Virus record (IMG/VR): IMGVR_UViG_3300044846_005229
Coordinates: 1 to 64,000 of that record
DNA from: a virus
Direction: 5' to 3' (one strand)
Length of the DNA stretch: 64,000 bases
Shown here: piece by piece, positions 4,650-53,971 of the stretch
Numbering within the stretch: the first letter of the stretch is position 1
Layout of the letters: each line of letters opens with the position of its first letter
Made by a program: the position numbers and the translations under genes
Notes under the pieces: model-generated
Databases searched by the model: none
The model's input: only the letters and a program-made list of their open reading frames with translations
What the model was told of the DNA's origin: nothing

Positions 4650-6017
4650 TTAGACTCCTTCATAATACATATTGATATACTTACGTGCGTTCTGATTGCT
4701 GACTTTCTCCCATACCCCCCTTCTAAATGATTCTGCCGAATGTTGAATGCCGAATGTTGCTATATCTTTAGCCTCACTCTTCGTCAGTCCGTCTTTTTCC
4801 ATTTCTGTCATCACTTTATTGAAATTCCTTTCCAACACATCAGCTTGTTTGCCTGTCGGGTAATTTGTCATCGCGAAGTTAGTCCCTGTCCATCCACCTA
4901 AAGCTTCAGATAAGGCTGCTTTCCAGTTTTTCTGAGATAACCCCAAATCAACAAACCTGGCCACCCCCTTATCATCAATAATTAAATTATCGCCCTTAGC
5001 ATCATTGTGGGCATACCCTAGTTTATGCAATTTTCCCATAGTGATATTGTAAGCGTCATCTTTGTCAATGCCATTGATCTTTTGAGGGGCCTTGTAAAGG
5101 GGGACTCCTGGAACAACTTCCATAGCAATCATACCTTTGTGGATGGTACCGTTATCCATGTTGCTATGGGCATTCTTTACGAATCTGGAGGCTATTAATT
5201 TGGGGCCCAAACCGACTTCCCCCAGTTTTTTAATTAAGGTAGCCTCAGTTCTACCGATATCCCCAACCTTAACGCCAATTTCATTAGGCATTCCATCCGA
5301 GTATCCAAGTAACTTCTTCGTGGGTATCTTCAGGAATGCTCCATAGCCCCCTGCACCCAATACCCGGGAGCCTGATCCTTCAACTGCGCTCCACTTTACC
5401 TTATCTGCTTTCTCTGAGCCATCAATGCTTATAGTGCCTTCGGGGCCTAGCCTTTTCATTTTGTCTAATAACTTACTGGCGGCTTCTCTGACTTTTCTTA
5501 CCTTATCTGCAGGGATATCACCATTCTTATGGGTAGTCATTGGGGCTGAGGGCCGAGTCCGTGCCACAGTTTCTTTAGGGGTCTTAGGAACTGGTTGATT
5601 CTTTAGTTTCTTGGCAGCATTTATTCTGCCTATAAGGGTGCGAAACCTTTGAATGGCTTGGCCAAAAAATAGTCCCAAGTTGTGTTCTTTGTCTTGAGTT
5701 TGCTTATTTATTGGTGGTGAATTCTTTCCCGTAGGGGGGTTCTTAATTGGGGGATTTTGGACAGGGGTAAAGGCAACTGGTTTGGTAACACCAAAAATCC
5801 TGTCCCTTACTTTTATCAGAGAACCCACAACAACATCAGGCAACTCGATAAGACAAGTCTTCACCCCTTCGATACAAGTTGCTGAGCAGCTTTTACCGAT
5901 AGAGCACCTTTTACGACCACCCCCGACAGCATTTGATTTGGACTTCAGAATCTCAGAACTCGATGGCGCATTGCCGGAGGGTGCCGCAAAGTTGAATTGT
6001 CCTTCACCATTTACCAC
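4650..6017 (-). CDS. Kinase-like protein A with N-terminal Cys tag
   Basis: Product of 455 residues from a GTG at 6017. Residues ~36-56 carry a four-Cys tag (RCSIGKSCSATCI, then C seven residues on) shared with three other proteins here. After a Pro/Lys-rich linker comes a protein-kinase-like fold: glycine loop GAGGYGAFLKIP, a beta-3 lysine in IGVKVGDIG, the catalytic segment AHNDAKGDNLIIDDKG, and a DLG in place of DFG. The C-terminus ends in a conserved KYINMYYEGV. Homologues are at 45095-46292 and 50180-51379. The motifs needed for phosphotransfer look intact; the substrate is unknown. A 59-residue gene lies 9 nt upstream. Confidence 0.75.
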   Translation of the reverse strand: MVNGEGQFNFAAPSGNAPSSSEILKSKSNAVGGGRKRCSIGKSCSATCIEGVKTCLIELPDVVVGSLIKVRDRIFGVTKPVAFTPVQNPPIKNPPTGKNSPPINKQTQDKEHNLGLFFGQAIQRFRTLIGRINAAKKLKNQPVPKTPKETVARTRPSAPMTTHKNGDIPADKVRKVREAASKLLDKMKRLGPEGTISIDGSEKADKVKWSAVEGSGSRVLGAGGYGAFLKIPTKKLLGYSDGMPNEIGVKVGDIGRTEATLIKKLGEVGLGPKLIASRFVKNAHSNMDNGTIHKGMIAMEVVPGVPLYKAPQKINGIDKDDAYNITMGKLHKLGYAHNDAKGDNLIIDDKGVARFVDLGLSQKNWKAALSEALGGWTGTNFAMTNYPTGKQADVLERNFNKVMTEMEKDGLTKSEAKDIATFGIQHSAESFRRGVWEKVSNQNARKYINMYYEGV

Positions 6018-6255: not shown

Positions 6256-6285
6256 ATTATACCCCGTGGTCGCTGCCTTTGTCAA
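6256..6285 (-). promoter_or_regulatory. Sigma-70-type promoter
   Basis: On the minus strand TTGACA (6280-6285) and TATAAT (6256-6261) are separated by 18 nt, about 50 nt upstream of the 59-residue gene and kinase A. Both boxes match consensus. Confidence 0.55.
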
Positions 6286-6407
6286 CCTTCCTCTCGGTCT
6301 TCTTCGGATTTGATGAAATCCTTAAGGTCTTTGACATATACGCGAAGATCTTGGGCCTTTTGAAGATGCCAATGTTGTTTAGTTTTCAAGTAAAGCATCA
6401 TGTGGTT

Positions 6408-6560
6408 TTGACTTCCTCCCCGCCGTGAACGGCGGAGATTCCTTCTACGCTGCGCATGGGGATGCCTCAGCGATCGGGTGGGTTGGCGCTTCACAGCCTG
6501 CTGCCACCAAAGCGGTGGACTGATGCGTGGCTCCACGCCCGTTTCGACCCTCCGCCAGTC
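6408..6560 (-). ncRNA. Putative omega-RNA scaffold at the IS right end
   Basis: In IS605-type elements the guide RNA of TnpB overlaps the 3' end of tnpB and the right end, with the guide read from flanking DNA. Here the right-end hairpin (6420-6435) and terminal GTCAA are present, and the guide would begin at 6407 going down in the interrupted phage gene. The RNA itself is inferred from family knowledge; its 5' boundary is a guess. Confidence 0.4.
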
Positions 6561-7653
6561 CGGCGGCGAGAATGTTCAAGGCAGCGTTGATGTCACGGTC
6601 GTGGACCGTTCCGCAGCTCGGGCACTGCCACTCCCGAATCGAAAGATCCTTCTTGCCGTCGTGATGCCCGCAGGTTGAGCACACCTGGCTGGTGGGGGGC
6701 CATCGGTTGATGACCACCACTTCACGCCCGTACTGCTCAGCCTTGGACTCCAGCAGGATCCGCAGCTGACGCCAGCCTGCATCGGCAATCGAGCGGGCCA
6801 GCTTCCTGTTCTTCAGCATCCCCGACACATTCAGGTCTTCCAGCACCACCGTTTGGTTCTCACGGATGAGGCGGGTCGAAAGCTGATGCTGATAGTCGAG
6901 GCGCCGATCGCCAACCTTGGCGTGCAGCTTGGCCACCTTGCGCCTGGCGATTACCAAGCGGTTGGAACCCCGTTGCTTGTGCTTCAGGTTGCGCTGTAGC
7001 CGCCGCAGTCGCTTGAGCGCAGAGCGCAGGAACTTCGGCGGGGCGAGCTTTTCACCGTCAGAAGTGACGGCGAGGGATACCAAGCCTAGGTCGATGCCAA
7101 CCGCCCTGCCATTCGCTGGCAAAGGAGTCGGCTCAATATCCACAACGAAGCTGGCGAAGAATCGCCCACTTGCATCGCGGATGACGGTGACGCTGCTCGG
7201 ATCCGAAGGCAGATCCCGGCTCCACTCAATCGGCACCGGGCCGATCTTGCTGAGCGTCAGCGTCCTCCCCCCTGTGCGGAACACATGGGACATGAAGCAA
7301 ACGGACTGCGCACCACGGCGCTTTTTGAAGCGTGGCGGCTTGACCTTCGCGCCCTTGCGCTTGCCTTTCAGGCTGGCCCACCAGTTGCGGTACGCCTGAT
7401 CGAGGTTGCGCACGGACTGCTGCAGCACCACATTGCTGGGCTCCGCCAGCCACTGCCGCTCTGGCGTCTGCTTGGCCTGCGTGATGCAGAGCTTGGCCAG
7501 GACGGGGTAGCTGGTCTTTTGCCCAGCGGCATACAGCTCACGGCTCTTGGCCAGGGCGTCGTTCCATACCACACGGGCGCAGCCGAACGCACGAGCCAGC
7601 GCCACCTGCTGATGCGGGTGGGGGTAGAGCCGGAAGCGGTAGCGTTGCTTCAT
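6445..7653 (-). CDS. tnpB: TnpB, RNA-guided nuclease of the IS605 element
   Basis: Product of 402 residues from the ATG at 7653; the frame is open to 7695 but MKQRYRFRLYP is the family N-terminus. It has the N-terminal helix-turn-helix (HQQVALARAFGCARVVWNDAL), RuvC-I in AVGIDLGLVSLAV, RuvC-II in VVLEDLNVSGM, a four-Cys zinc finger (CSTC...CPSC) and RuvC-III in HDRDINAALN. The three catalytic acidic residues and the zinc cysteines all appear intact. TnpB proteins cleave DNA next to a TAM under an omega-RNA guide and promote retention of their element. The start lies 29 nt from the divergent tnpA start. Confidence 0.9.
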   Translation of the reverse strand: MKQRYRFRLYPHPHQQVALARAFGCARVVWNDALAKSRELYAAGQKTSYPVLAKLCITQAKQTPERQWLAEPSNVVLQQSVRNLDQAYRNWWASLKGKRKGAKVKPPRFKKRRGAQSVCFMSHVFRTGGRTLTLSKIGPVPIEWSRDLPSDPSSVTVIRDASGRFFASFVVDIEPTPLPANGRAVGIDLGLVSLAVTSDGEKLAPPKFLRSALKRLRRLQRNLKHKQRGSNRLVIARRKVAKLHAKVGDRRLDYQHQLSTRLIRENQTVVLEDLNVSGMLKNRKLARSIADAGWRQLRILLESKAEQYGREVVVINRWPPTSQVCSTCGHHDGKKDLSIREWQCPSCGTVHDRDINAALNILAAGLAEGRNGRGATHQSTALVAAGCEAPTHPIAEASPCAA

Positions 7654-7682
7654 ACCAACCACCATACCAAACTTGGGGTGCA

Positions 7683-7945
7683 ATGGCGCAACCACCGCTT
7701 AGGCGAGGAAGGCACAGCGTTTCTCGGCTTGTCGTTCATTTGGTCTTTGTGGTCAAGTATCGGCGCAAGGCGCTGAGCGGGGCGGCATTGGATCGGATGC
7801 ACGAGGTCTGCCTGGGCATTGCCGAGCGGATGGGCTTCCAGCTGCTTGAGCTGAACGGCGAAGCAGACCATGTGCATCTGCTGGCGGGGCGCCCATCGAG
7901 CGTCTCAGGGAGTATGTGGAGTCTCAGGAAAAGCCGTCCTCAAGG
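7683..7945 (+). pseudogene. tnpA: TnpA (Y1 transposase), internally deleted
   Basis: The first ~69 residues match the start of an IS200/IS605 transposase, including VFVVKYRRKAL and the HUH metal-binding motif in DHVHLL. Immediately afterwards the family C-terminal segment (APIERLREYVESQEK) appears in a different frame. About 50 residues between them, including the region that normally holds the catalytic tyrosine, are missing. The gene is therefore an internal-deletion derivative and the element cannot transpose on its own. A full-length TnpA elsewhere could still mobilise it because both ends remain. Confidence 0.85.
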
Positions 7946-8079
7946 ACGGGGTTTGTGTCCCAGAACAGCCCCGTTATCAATGGCTTTAAGCAAGCTATGA
8001 ATTACTGGGTTCCACGGGCCCCTTATTGGGTTATCCCATTCTCTTTTTGACATTTGACCTACCTACTATTCTATGGGCA

Positions 8080-10431: not shown

Positions 10432-12372
10432 TTAAGCCTCGCAAGCTGTGCAATCTGTGTATTCTGGGGTGGTTTCTGTGGGCAGATTAAACTTTAAGAC
10501 ACTGTTTTCTTCTTTGTACTGCATGTACTCGGTATAGCCCCCGATGTGCTTATCGTAAAGCCATAATTGAGGGACGGTTTTCCAGTCGTGGTTCCAGTAA
10601 CCCTTGTCAATAGCCTCTTGTTTGTCCATCTCTTTATAAGTAATACCACAGCGGTAGAGTTCTTGTTTCAGGCTGTCGCACCAAGGGCACCCTTCCTTGG
10701 TAACGATGAGAGCTGGGGCTTTCTTTTTCTTCGTTAGAAGAGAACTCGACTTAAGGTAATAAAGAGATTTGAGACCCATTTTCCAAGCAGACAGGTGAAG
10801 ACGCATAATATAATCTGCATCAGCTTCGGGGTCAACAAACAGGTTTAGGGATTGCCCTTGGCAAATAAAGGGTTGACGATCAGCGGCTTGTTTCACAAGC
10901 TCAAACTGATCAACTTCCCGAGCTGTCTTAAACACCTCTTTTTCCTTGTCCGTCAAGCAAGCAAGTCCTTGAACACTGCCCCTGGCTTCCAGAATCTCGT
11001 CCCACACTTCTGGCCCAACCCCTTTTTTACAAAGTAGGCTCTCAAGAATAGGGTTCTTCCGAACATATGAACCTTTGGCTTGCTTCGCTACGAAATAGTT
11101 CGAGGCAATGGGTTCAATTCCTTCCGACCCCGCTCCGCAAATAACACTATTTGTTTTTGTTGGAGCAACGGCTAACAAATGTGTATGGCGCTTCCCACTA
11201 CCGACACACCACTCAGGTTCCCCCAGCTTGACTGCCAGCTCCCTTGAAGCAGTTTCGGCCTCTTGGAGGATCCATTTGTGAACCTGGGTATTAAGTTCCC
11301 TGGCTTCTTGGGACTTAAAGGGTAAGCCTCTTTTCTGATAGAGGGTATGCAGGCCCATGACCCCTAAGCCCAATGCACGAGACTTCTCAGCGAAACGGAC
11401 CGAACGGCCCATCCCCACTTTGTCCTTAGCCTTGCGAATGAACTCGGAAACAACGGATTCTAGAAGGTGGACAGCAATCTGAGGCACTGAGCGGCCAGAA
11501 ACAGGGGAGCGCCAATCCTTAAACTCGTCGTATTTCGATAAGTTAAGAGAGGAAAGGACACAAACAAAGGAATGGTTTTCGTCGGTATGAAGAAACACTT
11601 CGGAACACAAATTACTCGTCTTCACTGTCAGCCCTCTCTCAACGTAACAGGCAGGGTTCTGATTGTTGGCGTTGTCAATGAAGATAAGGTAAGGGCTACC
11701 TGAAATCATTCTTGTCTTGAGTACCTCTCCAAAAAGCTCTTGTTTTTCCTTGTTACCTGCGATCATGGATTCTATCCATTCGTCTGTGATCGTTAGGGCT
11801 ATGTTACTGTCAATTTTTTGACGAGAGTCCCCGTTAGCATGATCTTTTGCTCTAAGGATTTCTGGCACGTCGGGGTGTGATATGGGCAGATACATCGCAA
11901 AGGATCCGCGACGAACACCCCCTTGGGAGACAACTGAAGCGCATAAGTCGTATTGCCTAGCCCAAGGGACTATGCCTGTAGACTTTCCACCGCCAGAAAT
12001 TGGAGTTCCTGCGGGCCTCACATCCCCAAAGTACACACCAACTCCTCCACCATTCTTACTCAAAGAAGCCACCTCCTTTAGATGGGAATAGATCGAGGAT
12101 ATACTATCGGTAAGATGTATAGAAAAACAACTTATAGGTTGCCCACGATTGGTACCAAAGTTGGAACAAACTGGACTTGCAGGTCCGATAAAACCATTCC
12201 ACAAACAGTGAAAGAGATCTTCTTCTAGGGTCGGATCTTGATTGAGTTTGGCTGCTGTTGAGGACAATCTCGTCATCATATCACGAGGTGTCTCACCAGG
12301 TAGTAAGTACCCTGCAGACAATGTGTGCAAAGCCTCTTCAGACATCCATTCGGGGTGAGGTGTATTGGTCAT
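10432..12372 (-). CDS. nrdA: Ribonucleotide reductase class I alpha subunit with inserted glutaredoxin domain
   Basis: Product of 646 residues that reduces ribonucleotides to deoxyribonucleotides with NrdB. It lacks the N-terminal ATP cone. Catalytic features are visible: first active Cys in PISCFSI, the N-x-C-x-E motif in TSNLCSEVFL, the second Cys in SFVCVLSSLNL, the radical-path YY in LKSLYYLKSSS, and the C-terminal DCTACEA redox tail. Between the barrel and the tail (about residues 555-630) lies a complete glutaredoxin fold: CPWC active site, the cis-Pro loop TVPQLW, and the GGYTEY motif. Enzyme and reductant are thus on one chain. Its start overlaps the stop of the homing endonuclease gene by 4 nt. 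Confidence 0.9.
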   Translation of the reverse strand: MTNTPHPEWMSEEALHTLSAGYLLPGETPRDMMTRLSSTAAKLNQDPTLEEDLFHCLWNGFIGPASPVCSNFGTNRGQPISCFSIHLTDSISSIYSHLKEVASLSKNGGGVGVYFGDVRPAGTPISGGGKSTGIVPWARQYDLCASVVSQGGVRRGSFAMYLPISHPDVPEILRAKDHANGDSRQKIDSNIALTITDEWIESMIAGNKEKQELFGEVLKTRMISGSPYLIFIDNANNQNPACYVERGLTVKTSNLCSEVFLHTDENHSFVCVLSSLNLSKYDEFKDWRSPVSGRSVPQIAVHLLESVVSEFIRKAKDKVGMGRSVRFAEKSRALGLGVMGLHTLYQKRGLPFKSQEARELNTQVHKWILQEAETASRELAVKLGEPEWCVGSGKRHTHLLAVAPTKTNSVICGAGSEGIEPIASNYFVAKQAKGSYVRKNPILESLLCKKGVGPEVWDEILEARGSVQGLACLTDKEKEVFKTAREVDQFELVKQAADRQPFICQGQSLNLFVDPEADADYIMRLHLSAWKMGLKSLYYLKSSSLLTKKKKAPALIVTKEGCPWCDSLKQELYRCGITYKEMDKQEAIDKGYWNHDWKTVPQLWLYDKHIGGYTEYMQYKEENSVLKFNLPTETTPEYTDCTACEA

Positions 12373-13130
12373 TTTATTGAGTTCAGGAAAGTTGTCAAGG
12401 CTTGTAAGCTAGTTAGATTTAAATTTAACTCTGAATTGCAGGCCTTAGGCCCAACTATTCTACCATTTGGACTTTTTCTGTTTTTGTTAAGACTCCACCA
12501 CTCACGAATCCTACCGGAGTTGTCCGAAACGATAGCATAGTTGGGGTACCTTTTGCGAAGGAGTTCTTCAGACTCTTTTTTACCTTTTTTGTACTGGTTC
12601 CCCATTCTAGATAAAGACATTTTACGCTTGGCTTCGTCTGAAGCTTGTTTACCTTTTCTAGATTCTGACATTTTGCTCCTAGCTTCTGAGCTGTGTGTCC
12701 TGCCAAAAGAGGGATGGTCCTTCCCTCTACGCCCGTACATGGGATTTTTTTCCCCTTTATTATCAAACCCCATCTCTTTTAGAGCCTTTTTAACCCCCTC
12801 GGAGATAGCTAGTCTTTCTTTCTCTGTTCTAGGTCTACCCTTGTTATAGGCTTTAAGCCCAGTGGTGTCAAACTTGGTAGAAGTTTGGCAGGATCTGTTG
12901 ACGAACTCAGGGTTAGAAACAACTTCAAACACGTTCTGCCATTGTATTTCTGCTTTAGTTGCTGCTTCAGGTGAGTTAAATATTCCTAAAATAATCCTAG
13001 AGTCAGGGTTGAAAGTTTTATCAGAGAAGGACCCTAAATACTGGTCATAAAGGTCGTTAGTGCTGTGTTTTCCTATGTAATTTCGGCCATTATGGCTACC
13101 CTCATAGCTCAGATAAACTAAATGCCACAT
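12369..13130 (-). CDS. Free-standing GIY-YIG homing endonuclease with NUMOD3 repeats
   Basis: Product of 253 residues. The N-terminus has the GIY-YIG core as HLVYLSYEG followed by NYIGKHS, then LYDQYLGS as in SegE-like phage endonucleases. Residues ~120-190 hold NUMOD3-type DNA-binding repeats (KNPMYGRRGKDHPSFGRTHS, SKMSESRKGK, RKMSLSRMGN). It lies exactly between nrdB and nrdA, overlapping their ends by 1 and 4 nt, which matches mobile endonucleases known between nrdA and nrdB in T-even phages. It would cut related genomes lacking the insertion. It appears intact. Confidence 0.85.
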   Translation of the reverse strand: MWHLVYLSYEGSHNGRNYIGKHSTNDLYDQYLGSFSDKTFNPDSRIILGIFNSPEAATKAEIQWQNVFEVVSNPEFVNRSCQTSTKFDTTGLKAYNKGRPRTEKERLAISEGVKKALKEMGFDNKGEKNPMYGRRGKDHPSFGRTHSSEARSKMSESRKGKQASDEAKRKMSLSRMGNQYKKGKKESEELLRKRYPNYAIVSDNSGRIREWWSLNKNRKSPNGRIVGPKACNSELNLNLTSLQALTTFLNSIK

Positions 13131-14107
13131 TAGATTAGCTCCAAATCCAGTGTTTTTAGATTTACCATGGAGTAGTCCTGTAGGGGTTTGGCCACATAGG
13201 AATCTCCTGACTTGGACTGACTAAAGAAATCATTATTGGTGGCCCCAGCGGCGATAGGCTCGAACCACTTTCTTATTACATTGGCTCTTTCTTTATTGAA
13301 GTCTAACTTTTGTTCTAATCCCAGTGCCCGGAGGCGATTATTGGCCCGGAAAAGAATGTATTGTCTTAGGTTTTCTGGGTCAATGGTATCAAGGTGGCGG
13401 TCATCAAAGATTGTCTCAATGAAGGCAAATTCGTTCTTGATGACAGCCTCAAAGCCCTTGAAGATGTTATCCGCCTCTTCTTCAGTCAAGGGGTCTTCTT
13501 TTATAAGGGCCTTGAAAAGCTCAATGCCTGTGTCACTATGCTGTTGCTCGTCGTTAATTGACCAGGAGATCAGTTGAGAAAGTCCTCTGTATTTCCCCTG
13601 GAGATTAAGAGAAAGCAATACAGAAAAGCTGCTAAATAATGAAACCCCCTCACCTGCACCACTGAAGATAGCAAGGGATTCTTTAATGTTACGGTCTTCT
13701 AAGAAAAAACTAATCTTCTTTTGGGCAACAGGGTCGCCAAGAAAGGCTTCGAACTCATCTAGGCCAAGTGTGTCTGACAGGAGATTATATGCGTGGGCAT
13801 GGACCACTTCCGATAGGGAAAACATTCTTGCTGCTGCTGCAATCTCATGTTTAGGAAACCAGTCTGGGATCTTGGACCAGTATTCCCCGATGTGCGTCTC
13901 AAGAATGGTGAACCCCCTTAGGATTCCCCCAACAATTTCTCTCTCATCTTGAGAGGCGCTCTGCCAATCCCGGATATCACTTTCGAGTGGAACTTCCTCG
14001 GGGCGCCACACGGATCCAAGTGCTTTCTGATATTGCTCGAAGAAGTAAGGAAACTCGAAGGTTCCGTTAATTTTGTAGGGTTCTCTGTATTCTCTGATGC
14101 TAGGCAT
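13130..14107 (-). CDS. nrdB: Ribonucleotide reductase class I beta subunit
   Basis: Product of 325 residues. The diiron ligands can be picked out: Glu in TILETHIGEYW, Glu and His in SEVVHAHAY, Glu in AGEGVSLF, and Glu and His in NDEQQHSD. A tyrosine sits seven residues after the second Glu, the right spacing for the radical Tyr. It supplies the radical to NrdA. The gene runs nrdB, endonuclease, nrdA in one unit; its stop codon overlaps the endonuclease start as TAATG. The length is ordinary for cyanophage NrdB. Confidence 0.9.
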   Translation of the reverse strand: MPSIREYREPYKINGTFEFPYFFEQYQKALGSVWRPEEVPLESDIRDWQSASQDEREIVGGILRGFTILETHIGEYWSKIPDWFPKHEIAAAARMFSLSEVVHAHAYNLLSDTLGLDEFEAFLGDPVAQKKISFFLEDRNIKESLAIFSGAGEGVSLFSSFSVLLSLNLQGKYRGLSQLISWSINDEQQHSDTGIELFKALIKEDPLTEEEADNIFKGFEAVIKNEFAFIETIFDDRHLDTIDPENLRQYILFRANNRLRALGLEQKLDFNKERANVIRKWFEPIAAGATNNDFFSQSKSGDSYVAKPLQDYSMVNLKTLDLELI

Positions 14108-45094: not shown

Positions 45095-46292
45095 TTAATC
45101 CTTAGAGTAGTCTTTGACTCCGTCATACAAAATGTCGATAACTTTGGCAGCGTCCTTGTTTGATAGCTTGGCCCATGGGCCTTTCTCGTATGACTTCAGG
45201 GGCTGCCCAACCCGGGACACAATCATCTGGGTAATTTCGTTGTTAGAGATGCCGTGACTCCTGAGCGCGTCGTAGACTTTGGGTAAATTATCTCTCATTT
45301 TTAATAGATTTTGAGGGGCATCTCTCTTGATTGACCCTTTATACGTCCCCATTTGGGGGTCTGTTTTTGATCTATGGTCCCCAGAAGTCAAGGGATCGGT
45401 TTTTCTAAGGTCGAAAGTCGAACTTTTTGGCAAAAACGCTTTATTAGTAAAAACCCCTAGTGCTTCAGATAACGCGGCTTTAACGCTTTGCTGAGATAAG
45501 CCCATATCAACAAACCTGGACTTACCGTTTTTATCGATTAAGACATTATCTCTATGGGCATCATTGTGGGCTATTCCGAGTTTATGAATCCGTGATCTCA
45601 GGAACCAGTAAGCGTCCCCTATAGTGGTTTTTCCAACTTTGTCTGAAGACTTACTAAAGTTACCATAACTCTCACCTGGCACCAGGCCCATAACTATACG
45701 ACCATTTATGATGTAAACACCACCCTCTGCCTTTGGTTTGCCTTTGGCTATTTCCCCCATATATCAGTTTAGGGCCTAGACCGGCTTTCCCTAAGATTTG
45801 AGTTATTTCCGCTTCCGTTGTACTTACCTGGCCACGTTTAACGGCATAGCTCGGGTTTCCCTTTATCAAGAGCACAGTACCAAACCCACCTTCCCCTAAT
45901 TTGGTTCCTTTACTTAGGGACCCCGACCAGTCAAATTGATCCTTAGTACCATTAATGACCCTGCCTACCTTGAAACTAGAGTCAAAATCAGAAGCATCAT
46001 CTCTGGCCCATTGTGTGTTGCCAGTAATTATTTTTCCTGGCTTCTTGATTGACTCTTGATTTACTTTGGGTACAGATTTTGTGCTTGCTTTTGTGTTTGG
46101 TTCCACCCTCGCCAAGTAGTCTTCCAGACTTTCCTTGGCATCATCGATGAAACTAGCATCAATAGACCCGGATATACGGTCAATAGATTTAGATATGTCA
46201 TCCCCAAAATCAACCCTACAAACCTTTAGTCGGGCTATACATGTTGACCCGCATGATTTTCCTATATCACACCTATCCCCTTTACCAAACAC
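45095..46292 (-). CDS. Kinase-like protein B, apparent frameshift
   Basis: Two overlapping frames (46292-45672 and 45760-45095) encode the two halves of one kinase-like protein. Removing one base from the C5/G5 run at 45754-45758 joins them into 398 residues, nearly the length of homologue C (399). The N-terminal half has the Cys tag (RCDIGKSCGSTCI), glycine loop LGEGGFGTVLLI and lysine YAVKRGQ; the second half has AHNDAHRDNVLID and the DMG in RFVDMGLSQ. It starts at a GTG. Whether the shift is a sequencing error or a true break is undecided. It is 4 nt from the upstream gene. Confidence 0.75.
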
Positions 46293-50000: not shown

Positions 50001-50180
50001 TCAAAGATAGCGCATCCCTTCGATTACTTCGGGTGATACTTTACCTGAACTCTTTAATTCTTGGGCTGCCTTAAGGAGGGTTTGAGCCTTTCCTAAATCA
50101 GCAGGGTCTCTGCGGGCGACTTTATAAGCCCCCATTAATTTTTGGTATTTTTTATCGGATTCAGACATTTTACTTGCCAT
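50001..50180 (-). CDS. 59-residue kinase-associated protein (paralogue 2)
   Basis: Encodes 59 residues starting MASKMSESDKKYQKLM, paralogous to 6027-6206 (59 residues). Its start overlaps the stop of kinase C by one base (TGATG). The two small genes each accompany a Cys-tagged kinase, on opposite sides of it. Confidence 0.65.
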   Translation of the reverse strand: MASKMSESDKKYQKLMGAYKVARRDPADLGKAQTLLKAAQELKSSGKVSPEVIEGMRYL

Positions 50181-51379
50181 CAGACCCCATCATATAGAAG
50201 GTCAATGTATTTCTTAGCCTGTATGTCAGAGATTTTTGACCAGGATGAGTTGGTATTGAAATACTCATCTTTTTGCCTAATGTTGGTATTTTGAAATTTT
50301 CTAACGTCAGAATCTGACAAACTATCGGCTTTCATGGCTTCTACTACTGTTCTGATATTTGAACTAATTAAGTTAAAAATTTTTCCCCTACCATAGGCAT
50401 CCAATTGTCGTTCAGCTTCAAAGTCTGCCCCCGTCCTACTAGCACCACCTAAAGCCTCTGCAAGAGCTGCTTTACGGGAAACCTGGGCTAGCCCTAAGTC
50501 AACGAATCTTGCCACACCCTTACTATCAATCATCGTATTACCACCGTGGGTATCATTATGGGCTACACCCAACCTGTGAATTTTAGCCCTAGCTGTCCAG
50601 TAAGCGTCCCTTGTCTCTATGCCATTGACGACGTTGGGGGACTTGCCAAGCCGGGTCCCTTGTACCACCCCCATCGCGATTCTGCCTGTGGCCACCATGT
50701 ATTTTCCAGCCCCGAACTCTCCGTGCTGGGCAGCAATAAATTTAGGTCCCATGTTAGCTTTGCCGACAATCTTGAGAGCTTCTGCTTCATGGAGACCTAT
50801 TTCCCCAGCCTTAATACCTACATTCCTACCTAACGCACCGTTCGGAACTTTGAAGAACGCTCCAAACATGCCCTCACCCATTTGAACTGCATTAGGGTTA
50901 CCTACGGCGTTCCAATCAATGGATTTAGCTGCTTTACTACCGTCAACGTCCCTAAGTTTGAAACCAGGGGCGTCTATTACGTCGTAGACTTCTTTAGCTT
51001 TTGCGGGGAGGTTAACTACGGGGGCCTTAGCCGTGGGTTTTGCTACTTGGACTTCTGCTGCGGGCTTTGCCATGGGGGCCTTAGCCGCCGGAACCTTCGC
51101 TACCGGTTTTGCTACTTGGACTTCTGCTGCGGGGGGGCCCACTAGTGGTAACTTACGTTGGGCCAATATCTGATTAGCAACCTTAGTAATCACGGGGTTT
51201 AAAGCCCAAGGGATATCAACCATACAAACATGGTAGCCAGGGATACAGGACGCCCCGCAAGATTTACCCATCTTGCACTTTTTTTTCTTTAATTTAGGCA
51301 AATCAGAGCCACCTAGCCTAGCTATTTGGCCCCTCTTAGCGGCATTAATTTGAGCTTCTGTTCTTCCTAGGACTGCCAT
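50180..51379 (-). CDS. Kinase-like protein C with Cys tag
   Basis: Product of 399 residues. Tag: KCKMGKSCGASCI near residue 35, with a fourth Cys at ~50. A repetitive Ala/Pro/Lys linker (VQVAKPVAKVPAAKAPMAK) follows. The kinase fold has MGEGMFGAFFKV, lysine in NVGIKAGEIG, catalytic HNDTHGGNTMID and DLG (RFVDLGLAQ), and ends KKYIDLLYDGV. It lacks obvious regulatory domains. A GGGTAAAT motif ends 25 nt upstream. Confidence 0.75.
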   Translation of the reverse strand: MAVLGRTEAQINAAKRGQIARLGGSDLPKLKKKKCKMGKSCGASCIPGYHVCMVDIPWALNPVITKVANQILAQRKLPLVGPPAAEVQVAKPVAKVPAAKAPMAKPAAEVQVAKPTAKAPVVNLPAKAKEVYDVIDAPGFKLRDVDGSKAAKSIDWNAVGNPNAVQMGEGMFGAFFKVPNGALGRNVGIKAGEIGLHEAEALKIVGKANMGPKFIAAQHGEFGAGKYMVATGRIAMGVVQGTRLGKSPNVVNGIETRDAYWTARAKIHRLGVAHNDTHGGNTMIDSKGVARFVDLGLAQVSRKAALAEALGGASRTGADFEAERQLDAYGRGKIFNLISSNIRTVVEAMKADSLSDSDVRKFQNTNIRQKDEYFNTNSSWSKISDIQAKKYIDLLYDGV

Positions 51380-53089: not shown

Positions 53090-53971
53090 TTATCTCAGTA
53101 AGTTCCCTTCCCTTAGAACAGACTCCACCAGTTCATATTCTGCTGGAAAAAGTTTTTTCATTTTGGGTCCAGCGAATATGTAACTTGAGAATAGCTCAGC
53201 ATAGTGCTCTAGTTGATTTGTTTTACTGTACGTGCTAACTCTTTTGAAGCTATCGGGAATTCCAACTTCTTTCGCTTTGAAGTGGGCGTGGTGCCCTAGT
53301 TCGTGAACTAATGTCACCAGTGTATTATTGCTGGCTGACCCTGGAGCTTTACCCATAGTATGTGGCAGTTCTTTACCTTGGGCGGCACTGGATAAATGCT
53401 TTTCGGCAGTGGCCTTGATTTTCTTTACTTGTGGGGTAAACCCTGGAGCTGACCGAATAACTGTGACCCCTTCTTTATACGCTAACCCGCCCCAAGTCTT
53501 ATTGTAGATTTTCTGCGAGATGGTGAAATCTGGGTTTTTGAAGTACCCCGAAAATGCGCTTCTGAAGGCTTCTTTGTTGCCTGCAATGTCCTTCCAGTCC
53601 ATGAATAGGGTCTTAGTCTTATTGAAAATCCTCTGGAGAACTTCTACTCTGCGAGGGGCGTCTGGGTCCAGGTTTTTTAAATCCCGGATGGCGCCCATGA
53701 TGGAGTTCCTGTTAAAGTCTATCTTTAGGTCGGGGTGAGCTTTTACTTCGCCACTTCTCATTAGCTTGATGAATTTCCCAAGGGAATCTGCAATATATGG
53801 GCTTAATTCAACTCTGCAAACTAAACCCCGTTGAATGCAAGTTGAGCGACAAGATTTCCCTAAAGAACATCTTTTCTTCCCGGACCCCCCCCATCTCTGG
53901 GGTGCGCCTAGGTGCTGAATAGTTCCAGCAATTGCAAAATCAAATTCTTTAGGGTTATCTATTTCGATCAT
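53090..53971 (-). CDS. Metalloprotease-like protein with Cys tag
   Basis: Product of 293 residues. Residues ~33-50 carry the same tag as the kinases (RCSLGKSCRSTCI, then VC), after which the middle is helical. Near residue 225 lies a zinc-binding HExxH motif in LVHELGHHAHF. A further Glu ~30 residues on (LEHYAELFSSYIF) could be the third ligand. The enzyme would cut a protein substrate, unknown. It shares only the N-terminal tag with the kinases, so the tag is a separate module. Confidence 0.65.
   Translation of the reverse strand: MIEIDNPKEFDFAIAGTIQHLGAPQRWGGSGKKRCSLGKSCRSTCIQRGLVCRVELSPYIADSLGKFIKLMRSGEVKAHPDLKIDFNRNSIMGAIRDLKNLDPDAPRRVEVLQRIFNKTKTLFMDWKDIAGNKEAFRSAFSGYFKNPDFTISQKIYNKTWGGLAYKEGVTVIRSAPGFTPQVKKIKATAEKHLSSAAQGKELPHTMGKAPGSASNNTLVTLVHELGHHAHFKAKEVGIPDSFKRVSTYSKTNQLEHYAELFSSYIFAGPKMKKLFPAEYELVESVLREGNLLR

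What the first reader, a model, noticed from the sequence alone, without database searches (positions are those of the whole stretch)
6282..8053. IS605 element inserted in a small gene, tnpA deleted, tnpB intact
Exact excision of 6408-7975 restores a 67-residue phage frame. TnpA has lost ~50 central residues including the expected catalytic Tyr region, while TnpB keeps all catalytic residues. The TAM/target TTGAT precedes the insertion, so the guide read from the flank would match the uninterrupted allele. TnpB could then cut empty alleles in co-infecting phages and act as a homing-like drive without transposition. The element's high GC indicates a recent donor.
Basis: partly seen in the sequence, partly recalled or inferred. 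Interest (0 to 1): 0.8.

Follow-up and report, generated by a model that had tools for sequence, protein, structure and literature searches.

The report
Broken jumping gene in a cyanophage
A small jumping gene from cyanobacteria has landed inside a minor gene of a giant cyanobacterial virus and lost its own jumping enzyme while keeping an RNA-guided DNA cutter aimed at the uninterrupted gene; a related cutter in another virus sits beside a rewritten copy of its own target, which looks like a natural gene drive.

Summary
A 1,568-bp IS605-type element (window 6408-7975, minus strand) interrupts a 67-codon gene of a 279-kb cyanophage. Empty sites in related viruses match its ends exactly. tnpA has a ~145-bp frameshifting deletion; the HUH motif stays and the Tyr motif YVESQ survives only out of frame. 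tnpB is open with catalytic residues. The flank-derived guide matches the empty allele 20/20 after TTGAT in one relative (L010), and after TCGAT in two others.

The drive interpretation is only partly supported. The sole carriers are two identical assemblies of one virus, and the window TnpB shows relaxed constraint (11-13 amino-acid versus 8 silent changes, against 1 versus 11 in its closest relative; p = 0.004-0.008). Most likely this is a recent, non-autonomous, possibly decaying insertion from a picocyanobacterium.

The same TnpB clade holds something better. In another virus (L003/L004/L006) a TnpB with no tnpA and no left end follows a large structural gene whose last eight codons, stop included, are synonymously recoded. 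The native gene end lies directly after the TnpB right end, where the guide is read. This looks like natural RNA-guided homing with a protected copy, seen once among about 55 viral TnpB loci.

The parts
6282..8053 (-). 67-codon phage gene split by the element (5' part 8053-7976, 3' part 6407-6282)
   Evidence: Joined frame reads 67 residues; uninterrupted homologues in L008-L013
7976..7980 (-). TTGAT target / TAM directly 5' of the left end
   Evidence: Sequence; same motif before L005, L015, L016 copies
6408..7975 (-). Complete 1,568-bp IS605-type element
   Evidence: Exact empty site in L010; ends agree with family copies
7934..7949 (-). Left-end hairpin CCGTCC-TTGA-GGACGG
   Evidence: Sequence; the region is shared with family copies
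7683..8000 (+). Broken tnpA: HUH motif 7866-7883; ~145-bp deletion between about 7884 and 7912; YVESQ at 7913-7927 out of frame. The open frame runs past the element end
   Evidence: PF01797 positions 1-63 only; comparison with intact L110 TnpA
6445..7695 (-). tnpB, 416 codons (possible inner ATG start at 7653)
   Evidence: Pfam matches; alignment to ISDra2 TnpB structures
6408..6567 (-). Right end / presumed omega-RNA scaffold; terminal hairpin 6417-6438
   Evidence: Hairpin z = -4.0; weak Rfam matches HgcC and sot0042, below gathering score; conserved right end
6388..6407 (-). Presumed 20-nt guide AACCACATGATGCTTTACTT read from the phage flank
   Evidence: Identical to empty alleles of L008, L009, L010; guide production itself is inferred

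Best explanation
A recent single insertion of an IS200/IS605 element, from a family abundant in a picocyanobacterial MAG, into one lineage of a large cyanophage. Steps shown: exact insertion after TTGAT without target duplication; a tnpA-inactivating ~145-bp deletion; an open tnpB with catalytic residues; a right end whose flank equals the empty allele. Steps inferred: insertion used a TnpA, supplied before the deletion arose or in trans; tnpB transcripts yield an omega-RNA; TnpB could cut the empty allele. In this virus the element is best read as a non-autonomous remnant whose TnpB is already under relaxed constraint, with at most a residual ability to cut empty alleles of co-infecting relatives.
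For: Exact empty sites; ends match the family; tnpA deletion; no other TnpA in the record; cyanobacterial copies; 11-13 N to 8 S on the window branch against 1 to 11 on the L005 branch and branch lengths 0.041 vs 0; only carriers are two identical assemblies.
Against: The frame of 416 codons is open and RuvC residues are kept; overall dN/dS between window and L005 is still 0.15. Excess amino-acid change could be adaptation, and part of it may predate arrival in the phage. The exact donor is not sampled (best cellular copy 86% protein identity).
Confidence: 0.6

Rival explanations
1. Active homing-like drive in this phage: TnpB with its flank-derived guide cuts empty alleles of co-infecting phages, and repair copies the element in.
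For: Guide and TTGAT match L010 exactly; catalytic residues kept; TnpB homing proposed in PMC8612924 and a TnpB drive shown in plasmids in PMC11870625; a clade member shows a homing-like locus.
Against: One carrier lineage only; no homing tract in the flanks; relaxed constraint on TnpB; TCGAT in L008 and L009.
Confidence: 0.2
2. Non-autonomous but still mobile element: intact ends let a TnpA from the host or another element move it in trans; TnpB serves ordinary retention at excision.
For: Left and right ends conserved; L005 with no tnpA has the same ends at another TTGAT site in another virus.
Against: No intact family TnpA was found in the UBA5018 MAG; the exact deletion junction was found only in the same virus; the left tip differs from other copies (AACGG instead of CAGT/CACT).
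Confidence: 0.17
3. Assembly or binning artefact joining bacterial and viral DNA.
For: GC jump at the borders.
Against: Second assembly identical across the element and its flanks; ends coincide exactly with a TTGAT site that is empty in relatives.
Confidence: 0.02

Closest known systems
ISDra2 (IS200/IS605) of Deinococcus radiodurans, TnpB PDB 8bf8/8h1j
   Same: TTGAT target/TAM, tnpA + tnpB with left and right ends, no target duplication, RuvC and zinc-ribbon TnpB
   Different: tnpA broken here; some TAM-contacting positions appear to differ in the alignment; host is a phage gene
TnpB gene drive of IS200/605 elements in plasmids (Mears et al. 2025, PMC11870625)
   Same: Insertion reprogrammes TnpB against the empty allele of a multicopy replicon
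   Different: Shown experimentally in plasmids with working elements; here a phage, a broken tnpA and no functional data
Cyanophage Mic1 gp49 (TnpB-like) and its interruption by a host IsrB element (PMC11237433)
   Same: IS200/IS605 DNA of a cyanobacterial host moving into a cyanophage
   Different: There a host isrB inserted into phage tnpB; here an IS605-type element inserted into a small phage gene
Intron endonuclease interference between co-infecting jumbo phages PhiPA3 (PMC11620839)
   Same: A mobile-element nuclease could act against a related co-infecting virus
   Different: Protein-guided endonuclease in an intron, shown experimentally; here RNA-guided and untested
Synthetic Cleave-and-Rescue (ClvR) gene drives (PMC7951863)
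   Same: The relative L003 combines a nuclease aimed at the native gene end with a recoded, still coding copy
   Different: Natural, TnpB-based, only the last codons recoded; activity untested; not the window element itself

Membership tests
IS200/IS605 (IS605 organisation) | Divergent Y1/HUH tnpA and tnpB genes | tested here: met
   Both families matched, divergent strands; tnpA truncated
IS200/IS605 (IS605 organisation) | Insertion 3' of a short target without target duplication | tested here: met
   Exact empty site after TTGAT in L010; same for L005 against L055
IS200/IS605 (IS605 organisation) | Subterminal hairpins at both ends | tested here: met
   Left-end region shared with family copies; right-end hairpin z = -4.0
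IS200/IS605 (IS605 organisation) | Autonomous transposition by own TnpA | tested here: not met
   ~145-bp frameshifting deletion in tnpA; hence a non-autonomous derivative
TnpB RNA-guided nuclease | RuvC catalytic residues and zinc ribbon | tested here: met
   Conserved in alignment with ISDra2 TnpB
TnpB RNA-guided nuclease | Flank-derived guide matches the empty allele next to the TAM | tested here: met
   20/20 with TTGAT in L010; 20/20 with TCGAT in L008 and L009
TnpB RNA-guided nuclease | omega-RNA production and DNA cleavage | not testable with these tools
   Needs RNA and cleavage assays
Homing-type drive (window element) | Spread into several backgrounds, co-converted flanks | tested here: not met
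   One carrier lineage in two identical assemblies; flat flank identity
Homing with recoded protected target (relative L003-type) | Nuclease gene beside a recoded functional copy of its own target, native allele in relatives | tested here: met
   8/8 last codons synonymous-different vs 24/135 upstream, p = 3e-6; native allele in L040-L045
Homing with recoded protected target (relative L003-type) | Cleavage of the native allele and sparing of the recoded one | not testable with these tools
   Inferred from the ISDra2 rule that about 12 TAM-proximal bp matter (PMC10097598); here the first 11 guide positions still match the recoded copy, so protection rests on positions 12-18

The most novel reading that the evidence does not exclude
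TnpBs of this cyanobacterial clade repeatedly become RNA-guided homing genes in phages. They shed part of tnpA (window), then the whole tnpA region (L005), then the transposon left end (L003). In the L003 stage the phage carries a natural cleave-and-rescue drive: TnpB reads its guide from the native 3' end of a structural gene, while a synonymously recoded copy of that gene end, placed before TnpB, keeps the gene working and escapes cutting. The window element would be an early stage.
Probability: 0.35. Interest if true: 0.8.

Novelty: new member of a known kind. Interest (0 to 1): 0.5.

Why it matters
The window element alone is one more IS605 derivative, but with matched empty alleles in close relatives it gives a direct natural test of TnpB targeting between viruses. 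Its clade matters more: if the L003 arrangement works as read, it is a natural RNA-guided counterpart of an engineered cleave-and-rescue drive, and it would show how a transposon nuclease becomes a standalone homing gene.

Tried and rejected
Assembly artefact: rejected by a second identical assembly. Another TnpA or TnpB in the same virus: none. A spare copy of the disrupted gene: none. The same tnpA deletion junction elsewhere: exact match in viral contigs only in the second assembly. Direct search of phage and plasmid records: no close relative, only partial matches at low identity. Generality of the recoded-gene-end arrangement: sought in two overlapping sets of viral TnpB loci; only the L003-type loci show it; other shared peptides were short or low-complexity. 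Literature for a recoded TnpB homing locus: none found in the open-access library, which is not proof of novelty. The fold of the whole 123-nt right end is not better than shuffles (z = -0.4); only the terminal hairpin is. Structure prediction was not run because sequence already identifies TnpB.

Full report
WHAT IS THERE. The window is the first 64 kb of a 279,339-bp virus record. Its large terminase is closest to Synechococcus phage S-CBWM1 at 54% identity, so it is a large cyanophage. On the minus strand, 7975 to 6408, lies a 1,568-bp element with GC 62.4% in a ~45% GC background. Removing it joins TTGAT to AACCACATG and restores a 67-codon gene. Related viral contigs have that gene uninterrupted. 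L010, about 96% identical in the flanks, has the exact empty site GCCATTGAT|AACCACATGATG. L008 and L009 are also empty but read TCGAT, a silent change; L011 reads TCGAT with three guide mismatches. No spare copy of the gene exists in the record. A second assembly, IMGVR_UViG_3300042569_002782, is identical over all compared stretches: the insertion is real, but it is the same virus.

THE ELEMENT. TnpB (416 codons) matches all three Pfam TnpB domains, keeps the RuvC and zinc-ribbon residues, and aligns with ISDra2 TnpB. tnpA is divergent and truncated: Pfam Y1_Tnp matches only positions 1-63. Against an intact relative in viral contig L110 about 145 bp are missing, a frameshift. The HUH motif is at 7866-7883; the Tyr motif YVESQ is present at 7913-7927 in another frame. 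The right end GTCAA and the left-end hairpin region match family copies. The terminal right-end hairpin is strong (z = -4.0). Two weak Rfam matches at the right end, HgcC and sot0042, are below gathering score.

SOURCE. The closest copies are another virus, L005 (96%), and many copies in a cyanobacterial MAG, UBA5018 (best 86% protein identity). In the UBA5018 copies examined tnpA is also degraded. So the donor family is cyanobacterial, the exact donor is not sampled, and tnpA decay with tnpB kept recurs in this family. Of 27 viral records searched, 26 of them holding related TnpBs, 11 have a Y1 transposase.

IS TnpB KEPT FOR A FUNCTION HERE? Since the split from L005, the window TnpB has 11 (strict) to 13 amino-acid changes against 8 silent ones; L005 has 1 against 11 (Fisher p = 0.008 to 0.004). 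The protein tree puts the change on the window branch (0.041 vs 0). Changes include R133C, L269Q and L333P, where the closest relatives agree on the other residue. This is relaxed constraint, or less likely adaptation, and it weakens the claim that an active drive maintains this copy. Part of it may predate arrival in the phage. Flank identity to L008 and L010 is flat at the insertion, so no homing tract is visible.

WHAT IT MOST LIKELY DOES. Insertion 3' of TTGAT without duplication is the IS200/IS605 reaction (established; PMC8612924). By ISDra2 rules, TnpB with the guide AACCACATGATGCTTTACTT would cut the L010 allele. TCGAT alleles may be weaker or resistant; an archaeal TnpB is relaxed at -5 and -4 (PMC11043419), so this cannot be called. 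TnpB homing was proposed by Karvelis et al. (PMC8612924), and a TnpB drive was shown for plasmids (PMC11870625). For this element the drive is possible but unshown. The best-supported account is a recent, non-autonomous insertion whose TnpB is beginning to decay.

A STRONGER CASE IN THE SAME CLADE. L003 and L004 (two contigs identical over the 9.2 kb compared) and L006 (identical over 4.27 kb) carry a TnpB 80% identical to the window's. No left end or tnpA was seen beside it, and the L004 record has no Y1 transposase at all. It follows a 1,244-codon structural gene, tape-measure-like by length and motif but with no clear family match. The gene ends ...SMKTRKRLGL* before TnpB, and the same ten residues plus stop are encoded again directly after the right end GTCAA, where the guide is read. 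Six uninterrupted relatives, L040-L045, have one copy, followed at once by the next gene. The copy after TnpB resembles the native allele (2 of 11 codons differ from L040). The copy before TnpB differs from L040 at all 8 last codons including the stop, against 24 of 135 upstream, all synonymous (p = 3e-6). The recoded copy mismatches the guide at positions 12, 13, 15 and 18; L040, L042 and L045 mismatch only at 15. The right-end hairpin keeps its 9 bp although, relative to the window, 6 pairs changed on both sides and 2 on one. This is what a homing nuclease with a protected, still coding target copy should look like. Caveats: the first 11 guide positions still match the recoded copy; the native TAM there is CTGAT or CCGAT; the recoded end may have arrived with the cassette from a divergent virus; three assemblies may stem from related samples; and the arrangement appears once among the roughly 55 loci tested (also only once). 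L005 is a possible intermediate: tnpA wholly gone, left and right ends kept, inserted just after a stop codon at a TTGAT that is empty in L055. The order of these stages is inference.

VERDICT. Observation confirmed; interpretation partly supported. The window element is a new member of a known kind. Interest comes mainly from its clade.

Noticed in passing
L003:3838-5278 (also L004, L006 in part): TnpB without tnpA or left end after a structural gene with a synonymously recoded 3' end, with the native 3' end duplicated right after the TnpB right end; reads like RNA-guided homing with a protected copy.
   Followed up: yes
window 12369-13130 (-), block about 10500-13500: Homing endonuclease gene (PHROG homing endonuclease, NUMOD3 motif) exactly between an nrdA-glutaredoxin fusion and nrdB. 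Relatives are 95-96% identical outside but 68-78% in the nrd block, and nothing matches the endonuclease gene itself, as expected for classical homing with co-converted flanks.
   Followed up: partly
window 4650-6017, 45672-46292, 50180-51379, 53090-53971 (all -): Several otherwise different proteins share an N-terminal motif like RCSIGKSC.(A/S)TCI, some followed by a kinase-like part; possibly a family of packaged or injected proteins.
   Followed up: no
window 7971-7975 and 6405-6407: The left tip of the element reads AACGG where other copies have CAGT or CACT, and AAC is also the first flank triplet on the right, so AAC occurs at both junctions; chance or an imprecise event.
   Followed up: partly
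L016, L020, L022, L029: tnpA copies in the cyanobacterial MAG UBA5018 are all damaged, three of them by the same altered stretch at the HUH motif, yet the family is multicopy; the active TnpA source is unknown.
   Followed up: partly
L172 about 2922 and 4297: A direct repeat of about 27 bp flanks a more distant viral TnpB.
   Followed up: no
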